Source: Rhodoluna sp. (lineage in GTDB: Bacteria > Actinomycetota > Actinomycetes > Actinomycetales > Microbacteriaceae). From it: a stretch of 64,000 nucleotides of DNA. Location: contig JAHEDR010000002.1 of NCBI GenBank assembly GCA_024641095.1, positions 186,001-250,000 of the forward strand, in the 5' to 3' direction. The notes under the pieces are model-generated. The model was not told the DNA's origin, made no database searches, and saw only the letters and a list, made by a program, of their open reading frames with translations. Of this stretch, positions 5,267 through 54,178 are shown piece after piece. Numbering within the stretch: position 1 is the stretch's first letter; each line of letters starts with the position of its first letter. Position numbers and translations under genes: made by a program.

Positions 5267-5278
5267 GAGTAAAGCCTA
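5267..5278 (-). promoter_or_regulatory. -10 box of the GH13 operon (leaderless)
   Basis: TAGGCT at 5273-5278 followed by six bases and then the ATG at 5266, so the predicted first transcribed base is the start codon. No clear -35. Confidence 0.6.
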
Positions 5279-5327
5279 GGTGAAATCAATGGGGGTCATA
5301 AGTAAAGAGGTGTGCTTGGATATTTGA

Positions 5328-6503
5328 ATGCTCACACTCAAGAAAAAACACTTTTCGCTTGCCGCCCTGACCCTAGCCAGCCTCTTGGCTCTAACCGGTT
5401 GTGCGGGTGACCCGGCACCAAAGGTTGATCAGCTAACCGTTTGGGTTGACGAGCTTGAGGCCAAGGCGCTTGAGGGTGCGGCCAAAGAATTTAAGACCGA
5501 TACCGGAATCACCGTGAACCTGGTTGTAAACCAGGACCCACGCGGAAACTTCTTGAGCAGCTCAACCACCCGCGAAGGCCCAGATGTTGTTGCCGGTGCG
5601 CACGACTGGATTGGCGATCTAGTTGCCAACAAAGTTATTGAGCCAATTGATATTGGTGGTCGTGCTGGTGAATTCCAGAGCAACGCGGTAGATGCCTTTA
5701 AGTACGACGGCAAAACTTATGGCATGCCAAGTAACGTGCAGAGCCTCGCGCTAATTTGCAATGCCAAGAAGGTGCCCAACCAGCCAAGCTGGGACGACGT
5801 AAAAAAGGTTGGCCTGGCGCTGAGTTTGAATGATGGCGGTGGCGACCCGTACCACCTCTACACGATTCAAACTTCTTTTGGTTCGCATGTATTTAAGAAA
5901 GATGGCAACGGCAACTTCAAGCCAGCATTGGATTTTGAAAACGGCGGCCTTGACTTTGCCAACTGGTTAGCCGGCGAGGGCTCAAAGATTCTTGATGCCA
6001 CCTCAACCTGGAACTCATCGGTGACTGCAATGCAATCGGGCACCAAGGGCTGCTGGATCACCGGGCCATGGGTTTCAGGTGTGCTTGATTTGAATACCGA
6101 CGAATACAACATCTATAAGGTGCCATCGGTTGGCGGCAAAGATTCAATTTCATTCTTGAGCGCGCGAGGCTTCTATGTTTCAGCTCACAGCAAGGACATT
6201 TTCTACGCAAGAAAGTTTGTGGTGGATTACATCGGCAAGGCAGAAACACAAAAAGAAATCTTTAATGTCTCTGGCCGAATTCCGGCAAACAAATCTGCAC
6301 TAGATGCGGCCAAGGATGATCGAGTCGTTCAGGGCTTCAGCAAGGCCAGCCAGAACGCAGAGCCGCTGCCTGCTATTCCTGCGATGGCATCGGTGTGGGC
6401 TTCATGGGGAGCCACCGAAATGGCAATTATTACCGGCAAGGCCAAGCCTCAAGAAGCCTGGACAAAGATGATTGCCGACATTGAGGCCGCAATAGCCAAC
6501 TAG
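5328..6503 (+). CDS. Sugar ABC transporter substrate-binding lipoprotein (maltose type)
   Basis: 391 residues with a lipoprotein signal peptide: positively charged start, hydrophobic core, lipobox LTGC with the anchoring Cys at residue 25. The body has the features of MalE-type binding proteins (TVWVDELE near the start, the EGPDVVAGAHDWIGDL segment, and a C-terminal half ending in the AWTKMIADIE helix). It would capture oligosaccharides outside the membrane and pass them to an ABC permease. No malF/malG-type permease or ATPase gene is next to it: tRNA genes follow directly. The neighbouring glucosidases suggest maltose or related alpha-glucosides as ligand. No good Shine-Dalgarno sequence sits at the usual distance from the ATG. 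Confidence 0.88.
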   Translation: MLTLKKKHFSLAALTLASLLALTGCAGDPAPKVDQLTVWVDELEAKALEGAAKEFKTDTGITVNLVVNQDPRGNFLSSSTTREGPDVVAGAHDWIGDLVANKVIEPIDIGGRAGEFQSNAVDAFKYDGKTYGMPSNVQSLALICNAKKVPNQPSWDDVKKVGLALSLNDGGGDPYHLYTIQTSFGSHVFKKDGNGNFKPALDFENGGLDFANWLAGEGSKILDATSTWNSSVTAMQSGTKGCWITGPWVSGVLDLNTDEYNIYKVPSVGGKDSISFLSARGFYVSAHSKDIFYARKFVVDYIGKAETQKEIFNVSGRIPANKSALDAAKDDRVVQGFSKASQNAEPLPAIPAMASVWASWGATEMAIITGKAKPQEAWTKMIADIEAAIAN

Positions 6504-6550
6504 CGCGGGCCCAAGTAAAGGTGATAAAGTCTTCTGGTGCCTGGCGCTAG
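6500..6550. repeat. 7-bp inverted repeat flanking the SBP/tRNA-Thr spacer
   Basis: CTAGCGC at 6500-6506 and GCGCTAG at 6544-6550 are perfect inverted copies 37 bases apart, overlapping the lipoprotein stop codon. Without a T run it is a weak terminator candidate. A TAAAGT hexamer preceded by TGA lies inside (6522-6527) and could be the -10 of the tRNA genes. Confidence 0.35.
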
Positions 6551-6565
6551 AAGCCTTTGCACAAC

Positions 6566-6637
<72 letters not shown>

Positions 6638-6677
6638 CGCAACAAAAACAACCAATTGCTGATCTTTGGCAATGCCC

Positions 6678-6751
6678 GGCTGGGTAGCTCAGGTGGTTAG
6701 AGCACACGACTCATAATCGTGGGGTCGCGGGTTCGAGTCCCGCCCTAGCTA
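6678..6751 (+). tRNA. tRNA-Met (CAT), elongator type
   Basis: Acceptor GGCTGGG/CCTAGCT (with two G-U pairs), anticodon stem CACGA/TCGTG with loop CTCATAA (anticodon CAT), T-arm GCGGG TTCGAGT CCCGC. The ACTCATAATxxTGGGGTC pattern matches elongator methionine tRNAs rather than initiator; a lysidine-type Ile tRNA is a less likely alternative. CCA is not encoded. Confidence 0.9.
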
Positions 6752-6762
6752 CTAGATTCTTT

Positions 6763-6797
6763 AGACCTCCTAGACTCAACGTTCTAGGGGGATTTTT
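6763..6797 (+). terminator. Hairpin plus T6 after tRNA-Met, overlapping the next gene's RBS
   Basis: CCTCCTAGA pairs with TCTAGGGGG (9 bp, one G-U) and is followed by ATTTTTT. The GGGGG of the 3' arm is also the only Shine-Dalgarno-like sequence for the ATG at 6799. Confidence 0.75.
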
Positions 6798-6798
6798 T

Positions 6799-7293
6799 AT
6801 GTCTTTATTTAGACGACCGATATTTTGGCTGGCAATGCTGGTCTGGGGTATTGGAAATGCGCTTGCGGTGGCATCCATTAAAGCAGTTTCAGAATTAGAT
6901 GCCAGAACCTGGCCCCAACTCAAACTGGACTCTGAATGGACCGGCGCGGTCTCTGAATCAAACCAAACTTCATTTCTAAGCATCTTTATTGGGGCTTACG
7001 TTTTCTTCGTATTTGCCGGAAACCTGTGGGGAAGAGTTTTTGAGTACCGCTTTGGTAAAAGTTTGTTCGCACGAGTGGCTCTGCTTGGTGGAATCTTGAG
7101 TTTGGGAAGTTTTGTGCTTTGGGGTGTTTCTTGGCGAATCACAATGTGGCTTGAAGACGAGGGCTACTACTTAGCCGAGCGAAACACTTTTGATCAAGTC
7201 ATTAACTTTGGTCCGTTTTTCACTTGGCTGCTGGGTGGCGTGACATTCGTAATTTTTTCAATTCTGGCCGCCAACAAATTAGGCAAACGCTAG
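6799..7293 (+). CDS. Hypothetical integral membrane protein
   Basis: 164 residues that I cannot assign to a family. Four hydrophobic segments are visible: about residues 8-28, 60-78, 92-112 and 132-155, with an acidic, likely extracytoplasmic loop after the first helix. The start codon directly follows the T run of the tRNA terminator, and the ribosome-binding GGGGGA lies in the hairpin's 3' arm. It stands alone: the next gene has its own leaderless-type promoter. No catalytic motif is visible. Confidence 0.7.
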   Translation: MSLFRRPIFWLAMLVWGIGNALAVASIKAVSELDARTWPQLKLDSEWTGAVSESNQTSFLSIFIGAYVFFVFAGNLWGRVFEYRFGKSLFARVALLGGILSLGSFVLWGVSWRITMWLEDEGYYLAERNTFDQVINFGPFFTWLLGGVTFVIFSILAANKLGKR

Positions 7294-7294
7294 A

Positions 7295-7306
7295 TACTCT
7301 TGAGTT
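7295..7306 (+). promoter_or_regulatory. -10 box of the MaoC-MaoC-murB operon (leaderless)
   Basis: TACTCT at 7295-7300, then six bases, then the GTG start. The surrounding AGATACTCTT recurs before the lipoprotein gene at 50194. Confidence 0.6.
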
Positions 7307-7750
7307 GTGGTAAATCCAAACGTTCAGGGCAAGAAGTATCCGGCAACAGATCCTTATCTGGTTGGCCGCGAGAAGATTCGCGAATTCGCCCACGCGGTTA
7401 AATCAACCAACGCAATGAACCTTGATGTGTTTGCTGCCCAGGCAGCCGGCTACACCGATGTGATTGCCCCACCAACCTTTGCGGTTGTGATTCAGGAACG
7501 CTCACTGGCTACAGTGCTTGCCGACCCAGAAGCTGACATTGATTTCTTACGCGTGGTTCACGGCGACCAGCGCTTTATTCACGCCCGCCCAATTGTGGCC
7601 GGCGACGAACTGGTGAGCGAACTTGAAGTTGCCAGCGTGAAGTCACTTGGTGCTCACTCAATGGTGACCTTTGAAACCAAGATTTACGACGTAGACAAAG
7701 AACTTGTTTGCACCGCAATTTCTACTTTGGTAGTTAGAGGTGATGAGTAA
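7307..7750 (+). CDS. MaoC-like dehydratase, FAS1-type N-terminal subunit (HadA-like)
   Basis: 147 residues, GTG start. It resembles the hotdog-fold subunit that in actinobacteria pairs with a second MaoC protein to dehydrate 3-hydroxyacyl thioesters (HadA/HadC with HadB in mycobacteria). The opening KKYPATDPYLVGREKIREFA and the segment DVIAPPTFAVV are typical of this subunit. The gene overlaps the following MaoC gene by one base, indicating translational coupling and a heterodimer. Order MaoC, MaoC, murB is a known actinobacterial arrangement. The native substrate in an organism without mycolic acids is uncertain; ordinary fatty-acid or other acyl thioester metabolism is possible. Confidence 0.85.
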   Translation: MVNPNVQGKKYPATDPYLVGREKIREFAHAVKSTNAMNLDVFAAQAAGYTDVIAPPTFAVVIQERSLATVLADPEADIDFLRVVHGDQRFIHARPIVAGDELVSELEVASVKSLGAHSMVTFETKIYDVDKELVCTAISTLVVRGDE

Positions 7751-8172
7751 TGACTCACATCAACATTGCAGCACTTGAAATTGGCCAGGAGATTGGCTCA
7801 ACAGAATTTCTACTTACCCGTGATTCTCTAGTTCGCTACGCCGGTGCATCGGGTGACTTTAATACCATTCACTACCGCGACGACATTGCAGCGCAGGTTG
7901 GTTTGCCAGGTGTACTTGCACACGGAATGCTAACCATGGGTGCGGCCGTGCAGGTTGCAGTTGATTGGGTTGGCAATGCTGGCGCAATCGTGGACTACCA
8001 GGTGCGATTCACAAAGCCGGTTGTTGTTCACCCGGTTGATGGCGCAGTGCTTGTGGTTACCGGCAAGGTTGGCGAGATTGATGCCGAGAACAAAGTTGTG
8101 CGCATTGATCTAGAAGCAGTTTTTGCAGACACCAAAGTTTTGGGTAAAGCACAGGCGCGAGTTCAGCTCTAA
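7750..8172 (+). CDS. MaoC-family hydratase/dehydratase (HadB-like)
   Basis: 140 residues with the R-hydratase signature: a catalytic Asp/His set in SGDFNTIHYRDD followed by LPGVLAHGMLTMG. This is the catalytic partner of the preceding protein, acting on (R)-3-hydroxyacyl thioesters in the cytoplasm. It overlaps both neighbours by single bases, so all three genes of the operon are translationally linked. Confidence 0.9.
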   Translation: MTHINIAALEIGQEIGSTEFLLTRDSLVRYAGASGDFNTIHYRDDIAAQVGLPGVLAHGMLTMGAAVQVAVDWVGNAGAIVDYQVRFTKPVVVHPVDGAVLVVTGKVGEIDAENKVVRIDLEAVFADTKVLGKAQARVQL

Positions 8173-9218
8173 TGACAACTGCTTTAAAAGATTTAACTTC
8201 TATTCGAGTTGGCGGTACGCCAGCAGAAATTTACGTTGCAAAAACTCGCGACGATTTAGTTGAACACACTCTTGATGTTTGGCGTAGCGGCGACGACTGG
8301 TTAATTCTTGGTGGCGGCTCCAACATGGTTGTTGCCGATGACGTGAGTGAACTTCGCGTAATCAAAGTTGAGAACCTTGGCATTGAGCCGGTGCGCAACA
8401 AAGATGAATCACGCGTTGTGGTTCGCGTGCAGGCTGGCGAAAACTGGGACGACTTTGTTGCCCACACTGTAAAGGCCGGTCTTGCTGGAATTGAAGCAAT
8501 GAGTGGCATTCCGGGCACCGTTGGTGCCGCACCGGTTCAGAACATTGGTGCCTATGGTCAGGAACTAAGCGACAGCATGGTGCGCCTTGAGTTTGTTGAT
8601 TACGAGACTCACGAGATTGCAATTCTTGAAGCCAAGGACTTGCAGTTTGGTTACCGCGACAGCGCAATCAAGCGCGGGCGCCCGGGCGTAATTACCTGGG
8701 TTGAATTTGAATTACAAAAACTTGATGGCCTAAGCCGCCCGCTTTACTCAACTCAAATTGCAGCAGATCTTGGTGTTGAAATGGGCGCGCAGGTGCCGCT
8801 AAATGAAGTGCGCCAAAGTGTTTTGAAATTGCGTTCACGCAAGGGCATGGTGCTGGATGCCAATGACCCAGACTCAGTGAGCTGCGGAAGTTTCTTTACC
8901 AACCCAATCGTGAGTGACAAAGTTGCTCGAGCACTGCCAGATGATGCACCAAAGTATGAGACCGAAGAAGACGAAGGTCTGACTGTAAAACTTTCTGCGG
9001 CTTGGTTAATTGAAAACGCAGGAATTGAAAAGGGTTTTCAGATTGCCGGTTCAAACGCAGCAATCTCAAGCAAGCACACGCTGGCGATTATTAATAAGGG
9101 TGGCGCAACCGCTCAAGAAGTTTTGCAGTTGGCCGAATACGTGCAGGTGCGTGTTTCAAATAAGTTTGGAATCAACTTGCAGCCGGAACCGAATTTCATC
9201 GGGTTCGCGGGTCACTAG
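8172..9218 (+). CDS. murB: UDP-N-acetylenolpyruvoylglucosamine reductase
   Basis: 348-residue FAD enzyme that reduces UDP-GlcNAc-enolpyruvate to UDP-MurNAc, the second committed step of peptidoglycan synthesis. The FAD-binding part contains LGGGSNMV and SGIPGTVGAAPVQNIGAYG; the catalytic serine lies in CGSFFTNP. Length is normal for a MurB lacking large insertions. The start overlaps the stop of the MaoC gene (TAATG). Not usually linked by function to the dehydratase pair, but commonly adjacent in actinobacteria. Confidence 0.95.
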   Translation: MTTALKDLTSIRVGGTPAEIYVAKTRDDLVEHTLDVWRSGDDWLILGGGSNMVVADDVSELRVIKVENLGIEPVRNKDESRVVVRVQAGENWDDFVAHTVKAGLAGIEAMSGIPGTVGAAPVQNIGAYGQELSDSMVRLEFVDYETHEIAILEAKDLQFGYRDSAIKRGRPGVITWVEFELQKLDGLSRPLYSTQIAADLGVEMGAQVPLNEVRQSVLKLRSRKGMVLDANDPDSVSCGSFFTNPIVSDKVARALPDDAPKYETEEDEGLTVKLSAAWLIENAGIEKGFQIAGSNAAISSKHTLAIINKGGATAQEVLQLAEYVQVRVSNKFGINLQPEPNFIGFAGH

Positions 9219-9227
9219 TAACGCGTA

Positions 9228-9249
9228 AAACTTTTTAGCTAAAAAGTTT
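9228..9249. terminator. 22-bp perfect palindrome between convergent murB and aminotransferase genes
   Basis: AAACTTTTTAG is followed immediately by its exact reverse complement. It covers the stop codon of the minus-strand gene. AT-rich, so a weak hairpin, but with T5 runs on both strands; a bidirectional terminator is the simplest reading. Confidence 0.5.
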
Positions 9250-10434
9250 CTGCAGGCGCTGAATACCCTCAAGCAACGGCGCATCGCCAAGTGCGTAAGA
9301 CAAACGAACGTATCCCGAAGGACCAAACGCTTCACCAGGCACAAGGGCTACTTCTGCGGCATCAAGAATGTAGTCGCAAAGTTCAAGCGAAGTGTTGATT
9401 TGCTTTCCGCCCCATTCGCGACCAAGCAAGCCGGTCACGTCTGAGTAAACGTAAAAAGCACCCTGGGGCATCGGAGCATTCCAACTAGGAATCTTGTTTA
9501 GCTCGGCAACGGCCAACTTGCGACGACGGTCAAATGAGTCGCGCATTGCAAGAACTTCATCTTGCGGTCCGGTTAGCGCTGCGAGCGCTGCCTTCTGCGA
9601 AATGTTTGACACGTTTGAAGTTAGGTGTGACTGCAGGTTGCCGGCAGCCTTCATGGCATCTAGCGGGCCGGCCATCCAGCCCAAACGCCAACCGGTCATG
9701 GCGTATGACTTGGCCACACCGTTTACCAAGATGGTTCGGTCAATCAGCTCAGGCACTGCCTCTGTGATTGAAACGGCCTTTACGCCGTCGTAAGTCAGGT
9801 TCTGGTAAATCTCATCGGTGATTACCCACATGCCGTTTTCATAGGCCCAACGACCAATTGCCTCAGTCTCTTCGCGGGTATAAACCGATCCGGTTGGGTT
9901 TGAAGGCGAAACGAATAGCAAAACCTTTGAGCGAGGGGTGCGGGCAGCCTCAAGCTGGGCCACGGTCACCTTGTAGTTCTGGTCGGCACCGGCGAATACC
10001 TGCACCGGAATACCGCCAGCCAGGGCAATTGCCTCTGGGTAGGTGGTCCAGAACGGGGTAGGCATCAAAACCTCGTCGCCCGGATCAACCAGGGTGGCGA
10101 ATGCCTGATAAACGGCCTGCTTGCCACCGTTGGTCACCACAACCTGAGCTGCGGTAACATTGGTACCTGAATCTGCCTTGGTCTTGGCGGCAATTGCCTC
10201 GCGAAGCTCTGGCAGACCAATGGCCGGGGTGTATCGGTGGTTTTTAGGGTCCCGAACCGCAATTGCGGCGGCCTCAACGATGTGGGCCGGGGTAGCAAAG
10301 TCTGGTTCGCCGGCTGCGTAGGAGATAACCGGGCGGCCAGCTGCCTGCAGGGCCTTGGCCTTGGCGTCTACCTTTAGAGTGGCTGACTCGGCAATTGCGC
10401 CAATGCGCTTTGAAATGCGTGGGAATTCGGGCAT
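9235..10434 (-). CDS. aspC: Class I PLP aminotransferase, probable aspartate aminotransferase
   Basis: 399-residue fold type I aminotransferase. The cofactor lysine lies in [11 protein letters not shown]; other family marks are SYAAGEPDF near the N-terminus, [16 protein letters not shown] and the substrate-carboxylate Arg in GYVRLSYA. It most likely interconverts aspartate/2-oxoglutarate with oxaloacetate/glutamate, though close relatives use other amino acids. A TAACCT box six bases before the ATG suggests a leaderless transcript. Monocistronic, convergent with murB. Confidence 0.9.
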
Positions 10435-10446
10435 GCCACAAGGTTA
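10435..10446 (-). promoter_or_regulatory. -10 box of aminotransferase gene (leaderless)
   Basis: TAACCT on the minus strand at 10441-10446, six bases before the ATG at 10434. Confidence 0.55.
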
Positions 10447-10462
10447 CCAACCAGATTCCCCT

Positions 10463-10491
10463 TTGCAATACTGGGGCCCAGCGGGTATCCT
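10463..10491 (+). promoter_or_regulatory. Candidate promoter for tRNA-Trp/secE/nusG
   Basis: TTGCAA (10463-10468), 17-base spacer, TATCCT (10486-10491). Transcription would start near 10498, leaving a leader of about 110 bases before tRNA-Trp. The leader contains an AU hairpin at 10546-10559 followed by T6. Confidence 0.45.
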
Positions 10492-10609
10492 TTAGGAAGT
10501 GAGTTTGACAACTCAGGAAGCCTAATCTGGCAAATTAATCAATTCTTAGATTTATCTAATTTTTTGACGCCCGGATGACTGCCGCTCGTGTTGTTGAATT
10601 TTCCCTCAA

Positions 10610-10682
10610 AGGGTGGTGGCTCAATTGGTAGAGCATCGGTCTCCAAAACCGAGGGTTGCAGGTTCGAGTCCTGTCCGCCCTG
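10610..10682 (+). tRNA. tRNA-Trp (CCA)
   Basis: Acceptor AGGGTGG/CCGCCCT, anticodon arm CGGTCTCCAAAACCG (anticodon CCA), T-arm GCAGG TTCGAGT CCTGT. CCA end is not encoded. Lies directly upstream of secE as in many actinobacteria. Confidence 0.96.
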
Positions 10683-10715
10683 CAAGTAGTAACAACAACG
10701 AAGAAGGAATGAGCC

Positions 10716-10985
10716 ATGGCTGAAGAGCTAGAGCAAGTCTCAGAGGACCTAGTCGAAAAGGCTAAGGCCGATAAGGCGCAGAGCCGTAACTTCATTGCAC
10801 GCATCATCTTGTTCTTCAAGCAGGTTGTTAGCGAGCTTAAGAAAGTTACCAAGCCAACTTGGGCAGAGCTTCGCAACTACACCGGAGTTGTTTTGGCATT
10901 CGTTGCAGTTGTAATGGCCATCATTTCTTTGTTCGACTGGCTTTTCTACCAGGGTGTTGTATTCGTCTTCACCCCAACTGCTTAA
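10716..10985 (+). CDS. secE: Preprotein translocase subunit SecE
   Basis: 89 residues. A charged N-terminus is followed by the conserved amphipathic segment VVSELKKVTKPTWAEL and one C-terminal transmembrane helix (about residues 58-85), the single-helix SecE form that clamps SecY in the general secretion channel. GAAGGA precedes the ATG. Placed between tRNA-Trp and nusG as usual. Confidence 0.95.
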   Translation: MAEELEQVSEDLVEKAKADKAQSRNFIARIILFFKQVVSELKKVTKPTWAELRNYTGVVLAFVAVVMAIISLFDWLFYQGVVFVFTPTA

Positions 10986-11023
10986 AACTCGCACGTAATT
11001 TTTAAAAAGTAAGGACACATCAA

Positions 11024-11866
11024 TTGAGTGAAACAGAACGCGACGAACTAGAGGCTCTAGCCGAAGTTCAAGACGTTGCTGCTGACGCAGTAATCGCTGA
11101 CGCGGATGCTGACCTTGCAGACCTAGCCCAAGACGCTGCGGCTGAACTTGAGCAGGATCTAGAAGTTGAAGAAGCTATCGCTGAGGCAAAAGAAGAAGCT
11201 GCAGAAGTTGACGCAGAAGTTAACGAAGGCGGCTCAGACGACCCTTACCGCGAGTTCAAGGCAGAGCTTCGTCGCCAGCCTGGCAAGTGGTACGTAATTC
11301 ACTCATACGCAGGTTACGAGAAGCGCGTTAAGCAGAACATCGAAAACCGCAAGCTTGCAATCGAAGGTGGAGACGACATCTTCCAGATTGAAGTTCCAAT
11401 GGAAGATTCAATCGAGATCAAGAACGGCCAGCGCAAGTTGGTTACCAAGGTTCGCATTCCTGGTTACGTTTTGATTCGCATGGAAATGAACGAAGAGTCA
11501 TGGTCACTTGTTCGTCACACTCCAGCGGTTACCGGTTTCGTTGGTAACTCACAGAACCCAACTCCACTGCGCGCAGACGAGGCATTCAACATGCTGAAGT
11601 CTCTATACGTACTTCCTGAAGAGGCTGCTGCAAAGGCTGCCGTAAAGGGCGGCGTTGCCGTAAAGGGCAAGGCAAAGTCTGTTCCAGTCAACATCGATTT
11701 CAAGGTTGGCGAGAGCATCATGATCAAGGACGGATCATTCGCTGGTCTTCCTGGAACCATTTCAGAAATCAAGCCAGAAAGCGGCAAGCTTACTGTTCTT
11801 GTTTCTCTGTTCGAGCGCGAGACTCCTGTGGAGCTTGGCTTCGAGCAGGTTGGCGCACTGAACTAA
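11024..11866 (+). CDS. nusG: Transcription termination/antitermination factor NusG
   Basis: 280 residues, TTG start preceded by AAGGA. Residues 1-80 form an acidic, Ala/Glu/Asp-rich extension typical of actinobacterial NusG. The NGN domain follows (starting [20 protein letters not shown]), and a KOW domain closes the protein ([19 protein letters not shown]). NusG binds RNA polymerase and couples it to Rho or ribosomes. It is upstream of the L11/L1 genes in the expected order. Confidence 0.95.
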
Positions 11867-11909
11867 ATAGTTTTTAAAAAGTTTCCAAACAAACAAAAGG
11901 AAAAATCAA

Positions 11910-12341: not shown

Positions 12342-12356
12342 TAAACCTCATCCACT

Positions 12357-12397: not shown

Positions 12398-12423
12398 TGA
12401 CCAATTAGAAAAGGAATAACAGC

Positions 12424-13125: not shown

Positions 13126-13142
13126 ACCTTCGAAATAAATTT

Positions 13143-15671: not shown

Positions 15672-15701
15672 GGCAAAAGTTTAGAGGGATAGGCTGGAAC
15701 T
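15672..15701. promoter_or_regulatory. 30-bp divergent leaderless promoter pair
   Basis: TAAACT on the minus strand (15678-15683) is six bases from the kinase ATG; TAGGCT on the plus strand (15690-15695) is six bases from the ATG at 15702. The two -10 boxes are only six bases apart, so polymerase binding at the two promoters should be mutually exclusive. Confidence 0.6.
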
Positions 15702-24032: not shown

Positions 24033-24056
24033 TTCTACGAACTGTAGAATAGAGCC
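24033..24056 (+). promoter_or_regulatory. Leaderless promoter with overlapping palindrome, copper locus
   Basis: TAGAAT (24045-24050) lies six bases before the ATG at 24057. It is embedded in the inverted repeat TTCTAC GAACT GTAGAA (24033-24049), a plausible repressor operator blocking the -10. Confidence 0.55.
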
Positions 24057-29565: not shown

Positions 29566-29577
29566 TATTCGAGCCTA
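29566..29577 (-). promoter_or_regulatory. -10 box of the EamA pair (leaderless)
   Basis: TAGGCT on the minus strand at 29572-29577, six bases before the ATG at 29565. Confidence 0.6.
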
Positions 29578-35557: not shown

Positions 35558-35569
35558 TAGGCTTGGTTC
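35558..35569 (+). promoter_or_regulatory. -10 box of Gfo/Idh/MocA gene (leaderless)
   Basis: TAGGCT at 35558-35563 then six bases to the ATG at 35570. It overlaps the 3' arm of a small CCCC TTAC GGGG hairpin (35539-35563) that lacks a T run. Confidence 0.6.
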
Positions 35570-41095: not shown

Positions 41096-41107
41096 TAATC
41101 TCAAAAC
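41096..41107 (+). promoter_or_regulatory. -10 box of the HNH-like gene (leaderless)
   Basis: TAATCT at 41096-41101, six bases before the ATG at 41108. Confidence 0.55.
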
Positions 41108-41565: not shown

Positions 41566-42036
41566 ATGGCAAAGATAAATAAGGACAAAGTCACGGCTGT
41601 AAGTGACAAGGACTTCGTGGTGTTTCTTATTGGAATGCGCGTGAACAATTTATTTGCCATTCACCGCTGGCTACCGGTTTTCTTGGCCATGGGCAGAATG
41701 CTGCCTGAGCTCTACAAAAACCCGGAACTTGGCTTCAAATCGTATGAAATGGCTTTTGGTCGCACGATGATTTTGGTGCAGTACTGGGAAAGCACCGATA
41801 AATTGATCGCCTACGCAAAGGCCAAAGATGCCGAGCATCTTCCTGCCTGGAAAGCATTCAACAAAATGGTTATGAAGACAAGCGCAGTGGGCATTTGGCA
41901 TGAGACATACGTGATTGACAAAAATAAAACGGAGAATATCTACAACAACATGCCTCCGTTTGGGTTCGGCAAAGTTGGCAACATCCAGCCTGCGCAGGGT
42001 AAACGGAACTCAGCATCTCAACGCCTAGGTGAGTAA
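41566..42036 (+). CDS. DUF4188-like protein
   Basis: 156 residues resembling the DUF4188 group (FVVFLIGMRVNNLFAIHRWLPVFLAMGRMLPEL, then LVQYWESTDKLIAYAKAKDAEHLPAW, and HETYVID). The family has a dimeric alpha-beta barrel-like fold and is sometimes annotated as monooxygenase-like; activity unknown. AAGGA precedes the ATG, 14 bases after the HNH-like gene, so probably co-transcribed with it. Confidence 0.75.
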   Translation: MAKINKDKVTAVSDKDFVVFLIGMRVNNLFAIHRWLPVFLAMGRMLPELYKNPELGFKSYEMAFGRTMILVQYWESTDKLIAYAKAKDAEHLPAWKAFNKMVMKTSAVGIWHETYVIDKNKTENIYNNMPPFGFGKVGNIQPAQGKRNSASQRLGE

Positions 42037-42045
42037 AGTTTGGTT
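42034..42045 (+). promoter_or_regulatory. -10 box of DUF1801 gene (leaderless)
   Basis: TAAAGT at 42034-42039, overlapping the stop codon of the previous gene, six bases before the ATG at 42046. Confidence 0.5.
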
Positions 42046-42845: not shown

Positions 42846-42884
42846 GGCATCAGTGTATGCCAGACGTATTATTCACATATGCCA
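42845..42884. promoter_or_regulatory. Divergent leaderless promoters with three TGGCAT half-sites
   Basis: Minus-strand TACACT (42852-42857) and plus-strand TATTAT (42867-42872) each lie six bases from their start codon. The perfect repeat TGGCAT CAGTGT ATGCCA spans 42845-42862, and a third ATGCCA starts the plus-strand gene (42879-42884). Confidence 0.5.
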
Positions 42885-44841: not shown

Positions 44842-44853
44842 GGCTTTAGATTA
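44842..44853 (-). promoter_or_regulatory. -10 box of the DUF2306-like gene (leaderless)
   Basis: TAATCT on the minus strand at 44848-44853, six bases before the ATG at 44841. Confidence 0.55.
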
Positions 44854-44980: not shown

Positions 44981-45065
44981 CGGAGAATATGGGATTCGAA
45001 CCCATGAGGGCTTGCACCCAACCAACTTTCCAAGCTGGCGCCATAGGCCACTAGGCGAATTCTCC
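44981..45065 (-). tRNA. tRNA-Ser (GGA)
   Basis: 85-base type II tRNA read on the minus strand: acceptor GGAGAAT/ATTCTCC, anticodon stem CCAGC/GTTGG with loop TTGGAAA (anticodon GGA), a long variable arm (GTGCAAGCCC region), and T-arm with GGTTCGAATCC. CCA is not encoded. Confidence 0.94.
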
Positions 45066-45094
45066 TTATCGGCGGCCATGATGCTTGCCGATAA
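45066..45094 (-). other. Spacer hairpin between SRP RNA and tRNA-Ser
   Basis: TTATCGGC (45066-45073) and GCCGATAA (45087-45094) form a perfect 8-bp stem with a 13-base loop in the spacer between the two RNA genes; a likely processing site of a joint transcript. Confidence 0.5.
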
Positions 45095-45185
45095 AAGACC
45101 CCCCGCACACCCATCAGAGCCCAGTTACCCTTGCTATCTTTCGATCCTGGGGGAGTTAGCCGAGGTGACGCCGCACGGGGAGTCC
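45093..45185 (-). ncRNA. ffs: Signal recognition particle RNA (4.5S-type)
   Basis: Minus-strand RNA of about 93 bases. It holds the conserved domain IV: CCAGGATCGAAAGATAGCAAGGGTAA in two parts, a stem capped by a GAAA tetraloop next to the AGCA/AGGG internal loop that binds Ffh. The 5' end GGACTCCCCG pairs with the 3' end CGGGGGGTCT, after which comes TTTT. The location next to tRNA-Ser and dnaX is usual for actinobacteria. The SRP RNA guides membrane-protein ribosomes to the translocon. Confidence 0.88.
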
Positions 45186-45191
45186 ATGGCA

Positions 45192-45246: not shown

Positions 45247-45258
45247 TAGGCTATAGGG
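45247..45258 (+). promoter_or_regulatory. -10 box of dnaX (leaderless)
   Basis: TAGGCT at 45247-45252, six bases before the GTG start at 45259. Confidence 0.6.
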
Positions 45259-47696: not shown

Positions 47697-47754
47697 ACTA
47701 GGGACTTCACGCGGTATTTCCCGCAAAATCCCCCTGATTCAAGGAGATACGGTC

Positions 47755-49035
47755 TTGGCTCTGATTGTGCAAAAGTTTGGCGGTTCGTCTGTAGGAGATG
47801 CCGACAAGATTAAGCACGTTGCCAAGCGCGTAATTGAAACCCAAAAGGCGGGCAACCAGGTTGTGGTTGTTGTTTCAGCAATGGGTGACACCACCGACGA
47901 ACTTCTTGACCTGGCAAACTCTGTTGCCGATGACCCTTACAAGTCACCGCGCGAGCTAGACATGCTGCTTACCTCTGGTGAGCGCATCTCAATGTCGCTC
48001 TTGGCAATTGCAATTAACGCACTTGGTGCCATGTCACAATCTTTCACCGGATCACAGGCCGGAATCGTAACCGACAGCGTTCACGGTAACGCTCGTATCG
48101 CCGAGGTAACCCCAGAGCGCATTCGTGAATCGGTTGATGCGGGAAACATTGCTATCGTTGCCGGCTTCCAGGGCTTCAACCGCGAGACCAAAGACATCAC
48201 CACACTTGGTCGAGGTGGATCAGACACCACAGCAGTTGCACTTGCTGCTGGTCTAAAGGCAGACCTTTGCGAGATCTACTCAGACGTAGACGGTGTTTAC
48301 ACCTCAGACCCTCGCGTAATTAAGGGCGCCAAGAAGCTAGACGCAATTGATGTTGAATCAATGCTTGAGCTGGCCGCAGCCGGTGCCAAGATTTTGCATA
48401 TTCGTGCGGTTGAGTTTGCACGTCGTCACAACGTGGACCTTCGCGTTCGTTCAACTTTTAGTACAGACCCGGGAACAATCGTTTATTCAGGAAAAGCAGG
48501 AGCAGGCATGGAAGAGTCAGTCGTATCGGGCGTTGCAATCGACAAGGGCCAGACCAAAGTTATGGTGATTGGTATTCCTGACGTTCCTGGCAAGGCAGCC
48601 GAGCTGTTCACGCTGGTAGCTGATGCCGGCGCCAACATTGACATGATTGTGCAGAACACCCCAACCGGTTCAGACGTTACCGACCGCGTGAGCGACATTG
48701 GTTTCACCTGCCCTAAGTCAGAGACCAAGAAGGTTGCCGCAGCTCTTGAGGCAGCAAAGGCAAGCATTGGTTTCCGCGTAGTTGAGATTGACGAAGAAAT
48801 CGGAAAGCTTTCAGTCGTTGGTGCCGGTATGCGCACACACTCTGGTGTTTCGGCAACCATGTTCCGTGCATTGGCTGAAGCGGGCATCAACATTGAGATG
48901 ATTTCAACTTCTGAAATTCGTATCTCGGTAATTACCAGCGACGACCAGGTAGATGCAGCGGCTCGCGCGGTACACACAGCTTTTGGACTAGACAGCGACA
49001 TTGAAGCTGTTGTTTACGCAGGAACAGGACGATAA
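47755..49035 (+). CDS. lysC: Aspartokinase (alpha subunit)
   Basis: 426 residues from the TTG preceded by AAGGAG; the open frame upstream is shorter of homology. Kinase domain signature [12 protein letters not shown] at the N-terminus, then two ACT domains after about residue 255. It phosphorylates aspartate as first step to lysine, threonine, methionine and diaminopimelate, and is feedback-controlled through the ACT domains. As in Corynebacterium, an internal start for the beta subunit is present at 48508. Followed two bases after the stop by asd. Confidence 0.96.
48508..49035 (+). CDS. lysC: Aspartokinase beta subunit (internal in-frame start)
   Basis: The internal ATG opens [15 protein letters not shown] and has AGGAGCAGG just upstream. 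It yields 175 residues containing only the two ACT regulatory domains. The same arrangement is established in Corynebacterium glutamicum and Bacillus subtilis, where alpha and beta subunits form an alpha2beta2 complex. Expression of the short form here is inferred. Confidence 0.7.
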
Positions 49036-49037
49036 AA

Positions 49038-50102
49038 ATGGCAAAGCCAAATCTAGCTCTAGTAGGTGCAACCGGTGCCGTGGGTACCGTAATGATCGGC
49101 ATCATCAACAGCCGACCAAACATCTGGGGCGAGATTCGCCTAATTGCATCGGCTCGTTCAGCAGGTAAGAAGATCACCGTTCACGGTGAAGAGCTAACCG
49201 TTGTTGCACTTGCACCTGAGGCATTTGATGGCATTGATATTGCAATGTTTGACGTGCCCGATGAAGTCTCAGAAGTTTGGGCTCCAATCGCTGCCGAGCG
49301 CGGTGCAGTTGCCATCGACAACTCTGGCGCATTCCGTATGGACGCAGATGTTCCTCTAGTTGTTCCTGAGGTAAACCCTGCGCAGGCAAAGAACCGCCCA
49401 CGCGGAATCATCTCAAACCCAAACTGCACCACCTTGACCATGATGGCTGCAATGGGTGCGCTGCACGACAAGTGGCAGCTTGAAGAACTTGTTGTTTCTA
49501 GCTACCAGGCGGTATCGGGTGCGGGCGCTGCCGGCATTGACGAGCTTGCTTCAGAGCTTGCGGTAGTTGGTAAAGATGCCTCTCTGGGTACCAACACCGA
49601 CGACGTTCGCGGCGCACTTGCTGCAGCAGGAAACGACCTAAGCGATTCACCTTGGCGCCACCCGATTGCGTTGAATGTGATTCCTTTTGCGGGTTCACTA
49701 AAGGCCGGCGGCCACAGCTCAGAAGAGATGAAGGTTCGTGACGAGTCTCGCAAGATTCTTGGCATCAGCGATCTAAAGGTTGCTGCTAGCTGTGTGCGCG
49801 TTCCGGTTCAGGTTTCACACTCACTTACCGTGCACGCCAAGTTTGCTAACCCGCTAACCCCAGATGAGGTTCGCGATGTACTGAGCAAGCAGCCAACCAT
49901 TCGAGTGGTAGACGAGCCAGAAAAGCACCTTTACCCAACCCCAGCAATGGTGGTTGGCCAAGACCCAACTTTTGTTGGCCGAATTCGTCAGTCGCTGGAC
50001 TTCCCAAACTCAATCGAGCTATTCGTGGTTGGTGACAACCTTCGCAAGGGTGCCGCTTTGAACACCTACGAAATTGCCGAGCTGGTTGCCAAGGAGTTTT
50101 AA
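49038..50102 (+). CDS. asd: Aspartate-semialdehyde dehydrogenase
   Basis: 354 residues. N-terminal NADP motif [10 protein letters not shown], the catalytic cysteine in [11 protein letters not shown], and the substrate/dimer region with HSLTVH. Reduces aspartyl phosphate to the semialdehyde, the second step after LysC. AGGA upstream; two bases after lysC, so one operon. A hairpin follows at 50137. Confidence 0.96.
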
Positions 50103-50136
50103 GCAACTGCTGTTCAAAACCATTTAACAAAAACGT

Positions 50137-50166
50137 AACCCACCGGACGCGAGTCTTGGTGGGTTT
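50137..50166 (+). terminator. Terminator after lysC-asd
   Basis: AACCCACC pairs with GGTGGGTT across a 13-base loop, followed by T3. Confidence 0.65.
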
Positions 50167-50181
50167 CGTGTTTCTGCAAGA

Positions 50182-50193
50182 TACTCTTTACTT
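50182..50193 (+). promoter_or_regulatory. -10 box of the lipoprotein gene (leaderless)
   Basis: TACTCT at 50182-50187, six bases before the ATG at 50194; the same AGATACTCTT string occurs before 7307. Confidence 0.6.
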
Positions 50194-50757
50194 ATGTCTA
50201 GACTTCTTGCTGCAACATTGAGCTTGGGTCTTGCTCTCACACTTGGGGCGTGTGCATCGGGTCCAGTTGACGGCAACACCAATGGCTCATCTCGACCAAC
50301 TCCAACACCGGATCAGGCTCTTGTTCCTGCCGCGCCTACCGACGCACTGGTTGATGTAGATGCCGCCCTTTACGACGATGGCTTTGGCTGGTTCAGCTTT
50401 AAGGTTGGCGATGGCCCAACCTGGTGCACCATTACTCCAGAAACAGATCGCGTGCTTTGCGAGCAAAACGAAGCCGCCGCTCAATACCTACCGGTTCCAC
50501 CGGCAGAGGGCTGCGAAGGTAGCTACGGTTACCAGGTTCAGCTTTGGGCTAATAAGCCAGAGGTTGGCGAGATTGCAGAATTCCCTTGCGCATCAGGTCA
50601 GTTCCAGGACCCATCGGTTGCCCAGATTCTGCCTAGCGGAAGCAAAATCACCGTTGGCTCAATCAGCTGCTTTGTTGAAAATGTAACCGCACGCTGCGAA
50701 AACCTAAACGGCCAGTGGATTGCACTTGGTCCTGCGGTTTGGTCATTAAACGGCTAA
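50194..50757 (+). CDS. Hypothetical exported lipoprotein
   Basis: 187 residues. Lipoprotein signal peptide with LGAC (anchoring Cys at residue 20), a Thr/Pro linker (about 30-50), then a folded domain with six cysteines, probably in disulfides (TWCTITPETDRVLCEQ, EGCEG, FPCASG, SCFVENVTARCENL). No family recognised; several actinobacteria have small cysteine-containing lipoproteins of this kind. The last 12 bases overlap the end of the convergent metallophosphoesterase gene. Confidence 0.8.
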   Translation: MSRLLAATLSLGLALTLGACASGPVDGNTNGSSRPTPTPDQALVPAAPTDALVDVDAALYDDGFGWFSFKVGDGPTWCTITPETDRVLCEQNEAAAQYLPVPPAEGCEGSYGYQVQLWANKPEVGEIAEFPCASGQFQDPSVAQILPSGSKITVGSISCFVENVTARCENLNGQWIALGPAVWSLNG

Positions 50758-51633
50758 CAGAGTTATTAGCCTGACCTCTGGTTGGCAAAAGAATCTAACT
50801 GGCGCATAAATTGAGTGCCCAAGCCCGGCAACAACATTCAAAATCACATTGCGCCCGGCAAACTGCCAAGCACTAATTCCCTTTGCGTACTTGGCTGGCA
50901 AATCACAGTTAGTGGTTAGCGCACCAACCACCGGTAAACAAACCTGACCACCGTGAGTGTGACCGGCAAAAATCATTGAGGCACCGGCGGTTCCCATTGC
51001 TTCAAGCACTCGCAAATATGGTGCGTGACTTACGCCAAGAATTAAATCGCAACCGGCCAACGCATTTGCTTGATTTGGAATTGAAGTTAGATTATCTAGC
51101 TCGTCGTGTGCATCGTCAACTCCAATGAAGCCAAGCTTCACACCGTTGATTGTGATTTGGCCCTCGCGATTGTTTAGATTCAGCCAACCTGCAGATCTAA
51201 AGCCGCCAACCAGGCGAGCGGTATCAAGCACCGGGCCTTCGCTGCGCTCTGATGGCTTGGCCAAATAGCCAAGCGGGTTGCGCAATACCGGTGCGTAGTA
51301 ATCGTTTGATCCGTTTACAAATACACCCGGGGTTTGCAGTAGCGGAGCAAGAGCGGTTAGTACTGGTCCAATTGCATCTTTGTGACCTAGGTTGTCGCCG
51401 GTATTAATTACAAGATCTGGTTTTAATGAACCAAGTGAGGCTACGAACTTGGCTTTGCGTTTTTGCCAAGGCGCCAGGTGAATATCACCAATGTGTAAAA
51501 CGGTAATTGGCTTTGAGTTTGCCGGCAGAACTTTTACATTCTCGCGACGGACTACAAAAAGGAATCGTTCAATGCCAATGCCCCAAACGGCGCAGGCAAC
51601 GGCAATTGCAAGAAGCGCATAAAGCCATTGCAT
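50746..51633 (-). CDS. Membrane-anchored metallophosphoesterase
   Basis: 295 residues. An N-terminal transmembrane helix (about 3-25) precedes a calcineurin-like phosphoesterase domain with the metal-binding motifs HIGDIH, NTGDN, NGSNDY and, at the end, GHTHGGQ. Similar to YkuE-type enzymes proposed to act on lipids or nucleotides near the membrane. Located 18 bases downstream of the PBP gene on the same strand, an order seen in many actinobacteria. Substrate unknown. Confidence 0.88.
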   Translation of the reverse strand: MQWLYALLAIAVACAVWGIGIERFLFVVRRENVKVLPANSKPITVLHIGDIHLAPWQKRKAKFVASLGSLKPDLVINTGDNLGHKDAIGPVLTALAPLLQTPGVFVNGSNDYYAPVLRNPLGYLAKPSERSEGPVLDTARLVGGFRSAGWLNLNNREGQITINGVKLGFIGVDDAHDELDNLTSIPNQANALAGCDLILGVSHAPYLRVLEAMGTAGASMIFAGHTHGGQVCLPVVGALTTNCDLPAKYAKGISAWQFAGRNVILNVVAGLGHSIYAPVRFFCQPEVRLITLLAV

Positions 51634-51651
51634 GATTGCCGTGATTTCTAA

Positions 51652-54165
51652 TTAGGGGCCGGTGCTAATGATTAGCAGAATGGCTCCGGCCTGATCTGCT
51701 GGTGAGCCAGCAGCTGGGTCAGTACCAACAACCTTGCCCTTGGCAATGGTTGGGTGCTTCACAAAGAACTGAGACTGTGAGGCCTGAGGCTCGCTAACTG
51801 CGGCAAAACCTGCAGCCAGCAAAGTTGCCTTGGCGTTAATCACAGACATGCCTGCAACATCAGGAACGGTTTCGGCACCGCCGGCACTCACGTAGATCTT
51901 GATCTGTGAGCCGCGTGCACGAGTGTCACCAGCTGCTGGCTTTGTGTAAGCAACGCTGCCGGCAGGGAACGAAGAAGTCACAGGGGTTGCAATGATCTTG
52001 GCGTTTAGGTCAGACGCCTTTATCAATTCCGCCGCCGCAGCTGGGTCTGTGCCGGCTACTACTGGAACCGCAATCATTGTGGTGCCAAGCATGTCGTCGG
52101 GTGGTGGGTTAAAGCCGCTGCCAGGGTACTTCTTGTTTGCAGCCTTCATGATTGTGCGCCAAATGTCGTGACGCACTGTGTTGGCTGCCTTGTTGTTCAA
52201 ACGCAAACCACCAAGTGACTTGGTACCAACAACGTTTCCAACCCAGGTTGCAGTTGCAACCTGGGTAGAGAAACCGGTCATCCAGGTGTGCACACCAGAG
52301 TCAGTGGTTCCGGTCTTACCCGCAAGCGGTGTGCCGTCGCCAGTTGCCGAGGCACCACCGGTACCGCCAGAAATAACTCGCTGCATTGCATAGGTCATAC
52401 CGGCTGCAACCTCTGGGCTAACCGCTACTGAACAGTCGCTGGTTGGCGCGCGAAGCTCTGCCTTGGTGTTTCGAACAATCACCTTGTCAATCGCGATTGG
52501 AGTACAGAACACACCCTTGTTTGCAATACCGGCCATTGCAGCAGCCATGGTCAACGGTGCAATTTCATTTACGCCCAATACCGATGAAGGAATGTACTGA
52601 AGCTCGGTGCCATCGGCACGGTGCACACCAAAGCGCATTGCGGTGTCGCGAATGTCGCAGAGGTCAAGCTGTGCTGCCATAGAAACGTATGCGGTGTTAA
52701 CCGACATTGCAGTTGCCTGAACAATGTTTAGATCTTCTGGTTCCTTAACAATATTGTTAGGTTTCCAGGTGCCGCCAATGCCGCCGCATCGGGCTGAAAA
52801 TTCGCTGGCGTCCCACTCTTTTACGCGGCCATCAACGTGATCGCCGAGGCGCTTACCCGAAGACAACCACTGAGCCAAGGTAAATACCTTGTAGGTAGAT
52901 CCGGTCTGGAAACCAGATGAGCCACCATACTCTTTATCGGTTGCGTAGTTAACCGAGGTGTGACCAAGTTCTTCACTTTGGGTCTGGTCGTAAATTCTGT
53001 TCTCGGCAATTGCTAGTACGCGGCCGGTACCAACCTGCACCGATACGCTCGCAGAACCAATCTGGCTTGGGTCGTTGAACGGCGCCCACTTCATTGACGC
53101 CTTGTGTGCAGCTTCTTGAACGTCAATATCCATGGTGCTGTAAATCTCTAGGCCACCGCGGCGAAGAAGGTTCTCGCGGTCCTCAGGGGTTGGGCCAAAC
53201 TCTGAGTTGTTACGAATTGTCCAAACTACAAAGTCACAGAAGAACGCTGCGTTTTCTGTTCCCTCGCAACCCGATGGGGTGTGAGTGAGTTTGGTAATGA
53301 TTGGGGTGTTCTTGGCTTCGTCTGCCTGCTGACCGGTGATAAAACCAGCCTCATACATGTTGTTAATCACGTAGTCGCGGCGAGACTTGGCACGGCTAAG
53401 ATTTGCTTCTTCATCTGGCTTGTAGTCATTAGGTGACTTAAGCATTCCGGCAAGCAATGCTGCCTCTGGAATGTTTAGTTCAGATGCTTTTTTGCCAAAG
53501 TAGTAATTTGATGCAGCTTCAATACCGTTGATCTGGTTTCCGAAGAACGAAAGGTTTAGGTATCCGGCAAGAATCTCTTGCTTGGTGGCAACACCTTCAA
53601 GCGCAATTGCCAAACGAATTTCGCGAAGCTTGCGATCAATACCGCCAAGACCGCCCTGCGTAGCTGCGGCAATTGCTTCTTTGTCGCCGGCAAGGTTAGC
53701 CGCTTCAACCAAAGAGTTCTTTACGTACTGCATGGTGATGGTTGAACCACCAGGACCGTTACCAAGGGTTGCGGCGCTGGTAATGGTTGCACGAATTAGC
53801 GAAACCCAGTCCACACCGCCGTGCTCAAAGAAACGAGGGTCCTCGGTGGCAACTACGGCATTACGGATGTTCGGAGACATCTGGTCGTAATCAATCGAAA
53901 TACGGTTCTCGTGGTAAAACTTGGCCACTTCAACCGGCTTGCCATCTTGGGTGGCGTAAAGGGTTGATGACTGGGATGCGTTAATTGGCTTGATGTAATC
54001 AGGTAGATTCTCAAAGATTGTGATGCCGGCTGAGGCTGCAAAACCGCTAACTAGGGCGGTTGGGGCCAAAAGGGCTAGGGCTACAACGCCGGCTAGGGCA
54101 GAGAGACCAAAGAATTTAAGGAAGCCCTTGGCGAAACTTTCAGGCTTGCGCTGTGAACCAGACAT
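51652..54165 (-). CDS. Class A penicillin-binding protein (transglycosylase/transpeptidase) with PASTA domains
   Basis: 837 residues from the ATG opening MSGSQRKPESF; a TTG seven codons upstream would overlap the -10 box TAACCT (54173-54178) and is rejected. One transmembrane helix (about 20-45), GT51 domain with ATEDPRFFEHGGVDW, transpeptidase domain with active Ser in STYK, then SVN and KTG, and two C-terminal PASTA repeats (VPVVAG..., VPDVAGMS...). It polymerises and cross-links peptidoglycan; the PASTA repeats suggest muropeptide binding. Confidence 0.94.
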   Translation of the reverse strand: MSGSQRKPESFAKGFLKFFGLSALAGVVALALLAPTALVSGFAASAGITIFENLPDYIKPINASQSSTLYATQDGKPVEVAKFYHENRISIDYDQMSPNIRNAVVATEDPRFFEHGGVDWVSLIRATITSAATLGNGPGGSTITMQYVKNSLVEAANLAGDKEAIAAATQGGLGGIDRKLREIRLAIALEGVATKQEILAGYLNLSFFGNQINGIEAASNYYFGKKASELNIPEAALLAGMLKSPNDYKPDEEANLSRAKSRRDYVINNMYEAGFITGQQADEAKNTPIITKLTHTPSGCEGTENAAFFCDFVVWTIRNNSEFGPTPEDRENLLRRGGLEIYSTMDIDVQEAAHKASMKWAPFNDPSQIGSASVSVQVGTGRVLAIAENRIYDQTQSEELGHTSVNYATDKEYGGSSGFQTGSTYKVFTLAQWLSSGKRLGDHVDGRVKEWDASEFSARCGGIGGTWKPNNIVKEPEDLNIVQATAMSVNTAYVSMAAQLDLCDIRDTAMRFGVHRADGTELQYIPSSVLGVNEIAPLTMAAAMAGIANKGVFCTPIAIDKVIVRNTKAELRAPTSDCSVAVSPEVAAGMTYAMQRVISGGTGGASATGDGTPLAGKTGTTDSGVHTWMTGFSTQVATATWVGNVVGTKSLGGLRLNNKAANTVRHDIWRTIMKAANKKYPGSGFNPPPDDMLGTTMIAVPVVAGTDPAAAAELIKASDLNAKIIATPVTSSFPAGSVAYTKPAAGDTRARGSQIKIYVSAGGAETVPDVAGMSVINAKATLLAAGFAAVSEPQASQSQFFVKHPTIAKGKVVGTDPAAGSPADQAGAILLIISTGP

Positions 54166-54178
54166 AAACTCTAGGTTA
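54166..54178 (-). promoter_or_regulatory. -10 box of PBP gene (near-leaderless)
   Basis: TAACCT on the minus strand at 54173-54178, seven bases before the ATG at 54165. Confidence 0.5.

What the first reader, a model, noticed from the sequence alone, without database searches (positions are those of the whole stretch)
5267..54178. Leaderless transcription looks like the default: TANNNT exactly six bases before 15 start codons
A TANNNT hexamer ends six bases before the start codon at 5266(-), 7307(+), 10434(-), 15671(-), 15702(+), 24057(+), 29565(-), 35570(+), 41108(+), 42046(+), 42845(-), 42879(+), 44841(-), 45259(+) and 50194(+), and seven bases before 54165(-). TAGGCT accounts for five. Most of these genes have no Shine-Dalgarno sequence, whereas internal operon genes and several others do. 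Leaderless mRNAs are established in actinobacteria; the regularity here lets starts be assigned and makes initiation without a leader a major mode in this genome.
Basis: partly seen in the sequence, partly recalled or inferred. Interest (0 to 1): 0.7.

Follow-up and report, generated by a model that had tools for sequence, protein, structure and literature searches.

The report
Leaderless promoters, some shared both ways
In this small freshwater-type actinobacterium about a fifth of genes appear to start their message at the start codon itself, which is normal for its relatives, and a few neighbouring gene pairs appear to share one symmetrical switch that starts both genes in opposite directions.

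Summary
All 15 TANNNT sites six bases before a start, and the one at seven, are as written. They are far above chance: 13 of 48 mechanically chosen starts in the window, and 69 of 434 genes in a 490-kb sample of the genome against 8.2 expected. The spacing is conserved: 75 of 80 dnaX relatives have it at six, 5 at seven. Leaderless transcription from sigma-A -10 elements is the best explanation. "Default" overstates it: about 19% of genes, 43% of divergently oriented ones, 8% of operon-inner ones. Relatives give 17.8-30.5%; Actinobacteria are published at around 20% (PMC3160421). As stated, the finding is ordinary.

The less ordinary part lies outside the window. In this genus, divergent pairs (menC/menB, dut/DUF3093, msrA/neighbour) have start codons exactly 17 or 22 bp apart around a symmetrical -10: the geometry expected if one bidirectional promoter has both transcription starts on the start codons. 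Among the 30 best-scoring orthologs each, 20, 21 and 21 keep it. Outside the genus 1 of 28 family loci does, for dut and for menB. No transcript data exist.

The parts
5273..5278 (-). -10 hexamer TAGGCT, six bases before ATG 5266(-), alpha-amylase family gene
   Evidence: Pfam
7295..7300 (+). -10 hexamer TACTCT, six bases before GTG 7307(+)
10441..10446 (-). -10 hexamer TAACCT, six bases before ATG 10434(-)
15678..15683 (-). -10 hexamer TAAACT, six bases before ATG 15671(-), PfkB family kinase; start codon 30 bp from that of 15702(+)
   Evidence: Pfam
15690..15695 (+). -10 hexamer TAGGCT, six bases before ATG 15702(+); back to back with the hexamer of 15671(-), not shared
24045..24050 (+). -10 hexamer TAGAAT, six bases before ATG 24057(+)
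29572..29577 (-). -10 hexamer TAGGCT, six bases before ATG 29565(-)
   Evidence: the one relative with an aligned N-terminus has TANNNT at seven
35558..35563 (+). -10 hexamer TAGGCT, six bases before ATG 35570(+)
41096..41101 (+). -10 hexamer TAATCT, six bases before ATG 41108(+); TANNNT at six in 4 of 4 relatives with aligned N-terminus
42034..42039 (+). -10 hexamer TAAAGT, six bases before ATG 42046(+)
42852..42857 (-). -10 hexamer TACACT, six bases before ATG 42845(-), glyoxalase family gene; TANNNT at six in 2 of 3 relatives
42867..42872 (+). -10 hexamer TATTAT, six bases before ATG 42879(+), OmdA/DUF1905 gene
44848..44853 (-). -10 hexamer TAATCT, six bases before ATG 44841(-)
45247..45252 (+). 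-10 hexamer TAGGCT, six bases before GTG 45259(+), dnaX; spacing six in 75 and seven in 5 of 80 relatives
50182..50187 (+). -10 hexamer TACTCT, six bases before ATG 50194(+); TANNNT at six in 10 of 10 relatives with aligned N-terminus
54173..54178 (-). -10 hexamer TAACCT, seven bases before ATG 54165(-), penicillin-binding protein; same hexamer at seven in 6 of 6 relatives with aligned N-terminus

Best explanation
TANNNT at -12..-7 is the -10 element of housekeeping (sigma-A) promoters whose transcription start is the first base of the start codon, so the mRNA has no leader and the ribosome starts at the 5'-terminal AUG or GUG without a Shine-Dalgarno sequence. This serves about a fifth of the genes, most often divergently oriented first genes; the others use leaders, often with a Shine-Dalgarno sequence. 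The level is similar across the family. In this small-genome genus a few divergent pairs have gone one step further: the two -10 elements overlap, sharing TA (start codons 22 bp apart) or forming TANNNTA (17 bp apart), so one symmetrical element would fire two leaderless genes in opposite directions, one polymerase at a time. Shown here: motif, spacing, conservation, absence of Shine-Dalgarno words, and the two ORF spacings. Inferred: transcription start positions, promoter activity, leaderless translation, and competition between the two directions.
For: 69 of 434 genes at six against a background of 8.2; no peak at internal starts. Divergently oriented genes 42.8%, operon-inner 8.0%. Shine-Dalgarno words at background level in leaderless-type genes (5-8%), 35-46% in the rest, in three genomes. 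At spacing six the starts are ATG 51, GTG 18, TTG 0; C. glutamicum leaderless mRNAs are about 79% AUG and 21% GUG (PMC3890552 passages). dnaX spacing: six in 75 and seven in 5 of 80 relatives, at most 3 of 80 at any other spacing from 0 to 29. Shared-TA geometry: 190 matches in 60 same-genus genomes against 38 for the reversed pattern (table, summed); TANNNTA geometry 108 against 51 (summed). In 1.283 Mb of genus DNA not picked for such matches, cases with ORFs of 60 aa or more on both sides occur only at the predicted spacers (3 at six; 1 at five) and at 0 of the other 12 spacers tested for each form. Ortholog tests, on the 30 best-scoring loci of each search: dut 21 of 30, msrA 21 of 30, menB 20 of 30 keep the exact geometry.
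Against: No RNA data. The motif-blind histogram of divergent spacing (131 pairs outside the picked stretches) has no clear peak at 17 or 22 bp (4 and 1 by longest-ORF starts, 2 and 0 by coding-score starts), so the shared class is rare. Both-leaderless divergent pairs, 15 of 60, are about what independent occurrence gives (13, my arithmetic). Of 30 fetched shared-TA loci 15 lack a 60-aa ORF on one side (one of them cut by a contig end), and of 30 TANNNTA rows 13 do, so part of the pattern counts is chance. L257 (msrA) and L373 (menB) are counted as exact although the partner frame is 10 and 28 codons. The phylum sample shows 0 of 29 for dut.
Confidence: 0.85

Rival explanations
1. The -10 elements are real, but the main mRNAs of many of these genes come from other, upstream promoters and carry a leader; the leaderless start is a minor or conditional one.
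For: Alternative leadered starts are reported for some leaderless genes: 47 genes in M. tuberculosis (PMC3898074 passages) and about half of leaderless units in Zymomonas (PMC7566282 passages).
Against: These genes lack Shine-Dalgarno words (5 of 95, background level), and several have only 22-60 bp to a divergent gene, which leaves little room for a leader.
Confidence: 0.1
2. The regularity comes from choosing start codons to fit the motif, or from base composition.
Against: Motif-blind starts give the same sharp peak; internal starts give none; dnaX relatives keep the spacing, 75 at six and 5 at seven of 80.
Confidence: 0.01
3. The symmetrical 17- and 22-bp intergenic sequences are operators of a regulator, or two separate promoters that happen to touch, not one shared bidirectional -10.
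For: The msrA palindrome AGCCTAGGCT stays in several loci that have no divergent start codon at 22 bp (L259, L266, L267, L270, L282).
Against: Different gene pairs use different sequences (AGATTACGCT, AGCCTAGGCT, TAGTCTA) with only the -10 positions in common; both predicted geometries occur and two-sided cases at other spacers were 0; by coordinates, some distant dut loci have the 17-bp form instead of the 22-bp form.
Confidence: 0.15

Closest known systems
Leaderless ('TA-led') genes of Actinobacteria (Zheng et al. 2011, PMC3160421; M. tuberculosis, PMC3898074; C. glutamicum, PMC3890552; passages read)
   Same: TANNNT about 12 bp before the start codon in around 20% of genes (26% of M. tuberculosis genes with a primary start, 33% of C. 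glutamicum mRNAs by RNA-seq), AUG/GUG starts; no conserved -35 in M. tuberculosis either.
   Different: Nothing in kind. Here the fifth base of the hexamer is mostly C (72% of 69 sites), and no start has been mapped.
Closely placed divergent promoters in M. tuberculosis (PMC3898074; lysG/lysE, PMC5648196; passages read)
   Same: PMC3898074 calls closely juxtaposed divergent promoters common there and shows a divergent pair (prpD and its regulator) whose mRNAs are both leaderless; PMC5648196 describes overlapping -10 and -35 motifs of lysG and lysE, and a second, leaderless lysE promoter.
   Different: The passages do not place both start codons at the two starts of one shared -10; lysG and lysE are 108 bp apart.
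Bidirectional promoters with a symmetrical -10 element (E. coli, PMC12825309; Salmonella, PMC10268837; passages read)
   Same: Divergent starts around one shared -10; most common start spacing 18 bp, with 10 and 23 bp also common; 18 and 23 equal ORF gaps of 17 and 22 bp if both starts are start codons (my geometry).
   Different: Here both transcription starts would coincide with start codons, so the spacing of two genes is set by promoter symmetry; the passages I read do not describe this. Inferred from sequence only.

Membership tests
Actinobacterial leaderless genes (TA-led) | TANNNT about 12 bp upstream of the start codon, above background | tested here: met
   69 of 434 genes at spacing six, background 8.2
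Actinobacterial leaderless genes (TA-led) | No Shine-Dalgarno sequence | tested here: met
   5 of 95 against 53 of 141 and 84 of 197 in other genes
Actinobacterial leaderless genes (TA-led) | Mainly first genes of transcription units | tested here: met
   42.8% of 116 divergently oriented genes, 8.0% of 156 operon-inner genes; but only 9.0% of 105 same-strand genes with a gap of 40 bp or more
Actinobacterial leaderless genes (TA-led) | Transcription start at the start codon, shown by 5'-end mapping | not testable with these tools
   No RNA data available
Bidirectional promoters (symmetrical -10) | One -10 readable on both strands at an 18- or 23-bp start spacing | tested here: met
   By sequence: menC/menB 20 of 30, dut/DUF3093 21 of 30, msrA 21 of 30 loci; the window's own divergent pairs do not meet it
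Bidirectional promoters (symmetrical -10) | Transcripts in both directions | not testable with these tools
   No RNA data available

The most novel reading that the evidence does not exclude
During genome reduction in this Rhodoluna-like genus, separate leaderless promoters of divergent neighbours merged into single symmetrical -10 elements whose two transcription starts are the two start codons. For such pairs the intergenic length is quantised at 17 or 22 bp, and one polymerase-binding site drives two proteins, such as MenC and MenB of menaquinone synthesis, in mutual exclusion.
Probability: 0.65. Interest if true: 0.6.

Novelty: new variant of a known kind. Interest (0 to 1): 0.42.

Why it matters
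The leaderless part is a new member of a known kind, useful mainly for assigning start codons in this little-annotated lineage. The shared promoters would be extremely short control regions for two protein genes, would show how reduced genomes save promoter DNA, and would give natural, conserved test cases for how RNA polymerase chooses a direction at a symmetrical promoter.

Tried and rejected
Selection bias of starts: rejected by motif-blind starts and internal-start controls. The window as unusually rich: 16 hits over 55 genes against 81 over 379, p = 0.23. An unusually high leaderless fraction for the family: rejected. A -35 element: no enriched position for TTGACA-like words in 69, 57 and 65 sites of three genomes. 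A motif-blind peak of divergent spacing: none clear in 131 pairs. Excess of pairs with both genes leaderless: none (15 of 60). Conservation of the shared dut geometry in the phylum: 0 of 29 loci, though start positions align poorly there. 16S rRNA for the anti-Shine-Dalgarno: not found in this assembly. Literature searches: leaderless with Rhodoluna (0 papers), with Microbacteriaceae (3 papers with one or two mentions each), with genome streamlining and Shine-Dalgarno (5 papers), and leaderless with bidirectional or divergent promoters (listings; passages of PMC5648196, PMC3898074, PMC7566282 and PMC10937400 read). Within these searches and passages I found no description of start codons placed at both starts of one symmetrical -10. 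The core paper on divergent transcription by symmetry was seen only through later papers that cite it.
Full report
Where it is. The window lies in a 1.204-Mb, 11-contig assembly (96.5% complete). Its DnaX is closest to freshwater Microbacteriaceae, with a 77% best segment to a Rhodoluna sp. assembly. Records very near the own genome may be left out of that listing, so 'Rhodoluna-like' is an inference; the genus used below is the unnamed genus g1 of the genome search.

Check of the observation. Every listed site is as written: 15 at spacing six, one at seven, five TAGGCT. With starts chosen mechanically (longest ORF), 13 of 48 have TANNNT at six and none at seven, and the other 28 spacings hold 12 in all. 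Using the coding-composition gene caller on the window plus 28 further stretches (490 kb), with any candidate start near the 5' end, 69 of 434 genes have it at six and 28 at seven, against 8.2 per spacing; the excess at six and seven together is 18.6% of genes. Internal starts show none. 27 of 461 called genes were dropped before this count (open end, low score, or too near an end). The caller did not call two of the listed genes, 42879(+) and 44841(-).

Context. The excess is 42.8% of 116 divergently oriented genes, 9.0% of 105 same-strand genes with a gap of 40 bp or more, 16.2% of 47 with a gap between 15 and 40 bp, and 8.0% of 156 with a gap of 15 bp or less. Shine-Dalgarno words sit at background in leaderless-type genes (5-8%) and at 35-46% in the others, in three genomes of the genus. 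The hexamer is mostly TA(G/A)NCT (TAGGCT 20 of 69, C at the fifth base 72%); C is nearly absent at -5, and A is common at -4. No -35 word is enriched, as reported for M. tuberculosis (PMC3898074 passages). A softer hexamer model trained on the other two genomes gives 6.0-18.3% for the own genome depending on the threshold.

Comparison. In the 80 named dnaX loci, binned by GC, the excess is 17.8-30.5%. Two unnamed same-genus genomes give 18.7% and 21.7%. Published Actinobacteria are around 20% (PMC3160421 passages). The genome is therefore ordinary, and 'default' is too strong. The exact spacing looks selected: upstream of dnaX it is six in 75 and seven in 5 of 80 relatives, with at most 3 of 80 at any other spacing from 0 to 29. 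For the penicillin-binding protein at 54165(-) the odd spacing of seven, with the same hexamer, is kept in 6 of 6 relatives with an aligned N-terminus; 41108 is kept in 4 of 4, 50194 in 10 of 10, 42845 in 2 of 3, and 29565 has TANNNT at seven in its one relative. The other listed genes had no relative with an aligned N-terminus in those loci.

Shared promoters. Among 60 divergent pairs of the own sample, 15 have the motif on both sides, 26 on one, 19 on none. Three of the tightest (L083, L105, L081) have overlapping hexamers. Geometry predicts two forms: hexamers sharing TA put the two starts 23 bp apart (22 bp between start codons), and TANNNTA puts them 18 bp apart (17 bp between). E. coli bidirectional promoters prefer 18 bp, with 10 and 23 also common (PMC12825309 passages), and at 18 bp positions -7 and -11 coincide (PMC10268837 passages). 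The first form has 190 matches in 60 same-genus genomes against 38 for the reversed pattern (56 of 60 genomes have one, sums). The second has 108 against 51 (48 of 60 genomes, sums). Of 30 loci or match rows examined each, 15 and 17 have ORFs of at least 60 aa on both sides starting exactly at the two codons (counted from its rows). In 1.283 Mb of genus DNA not picked for such matches, two-sided cases exist only at the predicted spacers, 3 and 1; the other 12 spacers for each form have none, although the shared-TA form has 14 matches without two-sided ORFs there. The three are all from the own genome; in G047 and G006 the stretches with known matches of this form had been left out, so none could appear from those.

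Orthologs. Searching by protein rather than by pattern, on the 30 best-scoring loci laid out per search, dut (divergent to DUF3093) keeps the 22-bp form in 21 of 30, and msrA keeps it in 21 of 30 (one of these with a partner frame of only 10 codons; the partner resembles the own aldo/keto reductase in some genomes, while in others an ORF without that resemblance starts there). menB (divergent to menC) keeps the 17-bp form in 20 of 30, one with a partner frame of 28 codons; menC is divergent in 22 of 30, and menB has the leaderless motif in 30 of 30. These genes were chosen because a pattern had found them in the own genome, and the loci are the closest relatives. In the family outside the genus, dut has the leaderless motif in 27 of 28 loci with DUF3093 divergent in 28, but the 22-bp form in only one (L285, genome G219, 1.5 Mb). 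menB has the motif in 26 of 28, menC is divergent in 19, and the 17-bp form occurs in only one (L402, the same G219). The phylum sample gave 0 of 29 for dut. The simplest reading is that each gene was leaderless in the family's ancestor and that the two promoters merged in small-genome lineages. Names of the gene products come from Pfam and NCBIfam hits.

Own genome tally. Seven pattern matches: five of the 22-bp form and two of the 17-bp form. Five have ORFs of 60 aa or more on both sides: EamA/glpX, dut/DUF3093, msrA/aldo-keto reductase, deoC/74-aa ORF and menC/menB. The one at C1:432002 has not (8 and 18 codons), nor has the one at C1:266731, which lies in L085 and was not among the two-sided cases. 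None lies in the window; the menC/menB pair is about 15 kb before its start. The window's own tight divergent pairs (15671/15702, 30 bp; 42845/42879, 33 bp) have back-to-back, unshared hexamers.

What is not shown. No transcript start, no promoter activity and no translation has been measured. The shared class is rare, about five pairs in this genome, and the motif-blind histogram of spacing shows no clear peak.

Noticed in passing
window 45091-45187(-), 44981-45065(-): The SRP RNA gene and a tRNA gene lie divergent to dnaX. A TGTC word upstream of the dnaX -10 (62 of 80 relatives) may be the reverse-strand -35 of the SRP RNA promoter (inference).
   Followed up: partly
window 45247-45252 and 68 further own-genome sites: The fifth base of the -10 hexamer is C in 72% of 69 sites; in the GC groups of relatives it ranges from 35 of 73 (highest GC) to 19 of 25 (lowest GC).
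   Followed up: partly
G000:C7:638199-638226 (L313:3199): deoC and a 74-aa ORF start 22 bp apart around a shared TA; similar deoC-like sites in L315, L316, L317 and, with another partner, L318.
   Followed up: partly
dut loci of G025, G026, G032, G035, G042, G044, G048: In these more distant same-genus genomes the sequence next to dut, by coordinates, matches the 17-bp instead of the 22-bp form.
   Followed up: partly
G003:C20:15285, G024:C12:33257, G024:C64:1129, G052:C4:40126: A recurrent near-identical 28-bp match with a 208-aa ORF on one side only (checked in L111 and L112); possibly an operator.
   Followed up: no
L070: This dnaX locus of Microbacteriaceae type comes from a record titled Acidobacteria bacterium, probably a mislabelled assembly.
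   Followed up: no
G000 whole assembly: No 16S rRNA gene was found, so the anti-Shine-Dalgarno tail could not be read.
   Followed up: no
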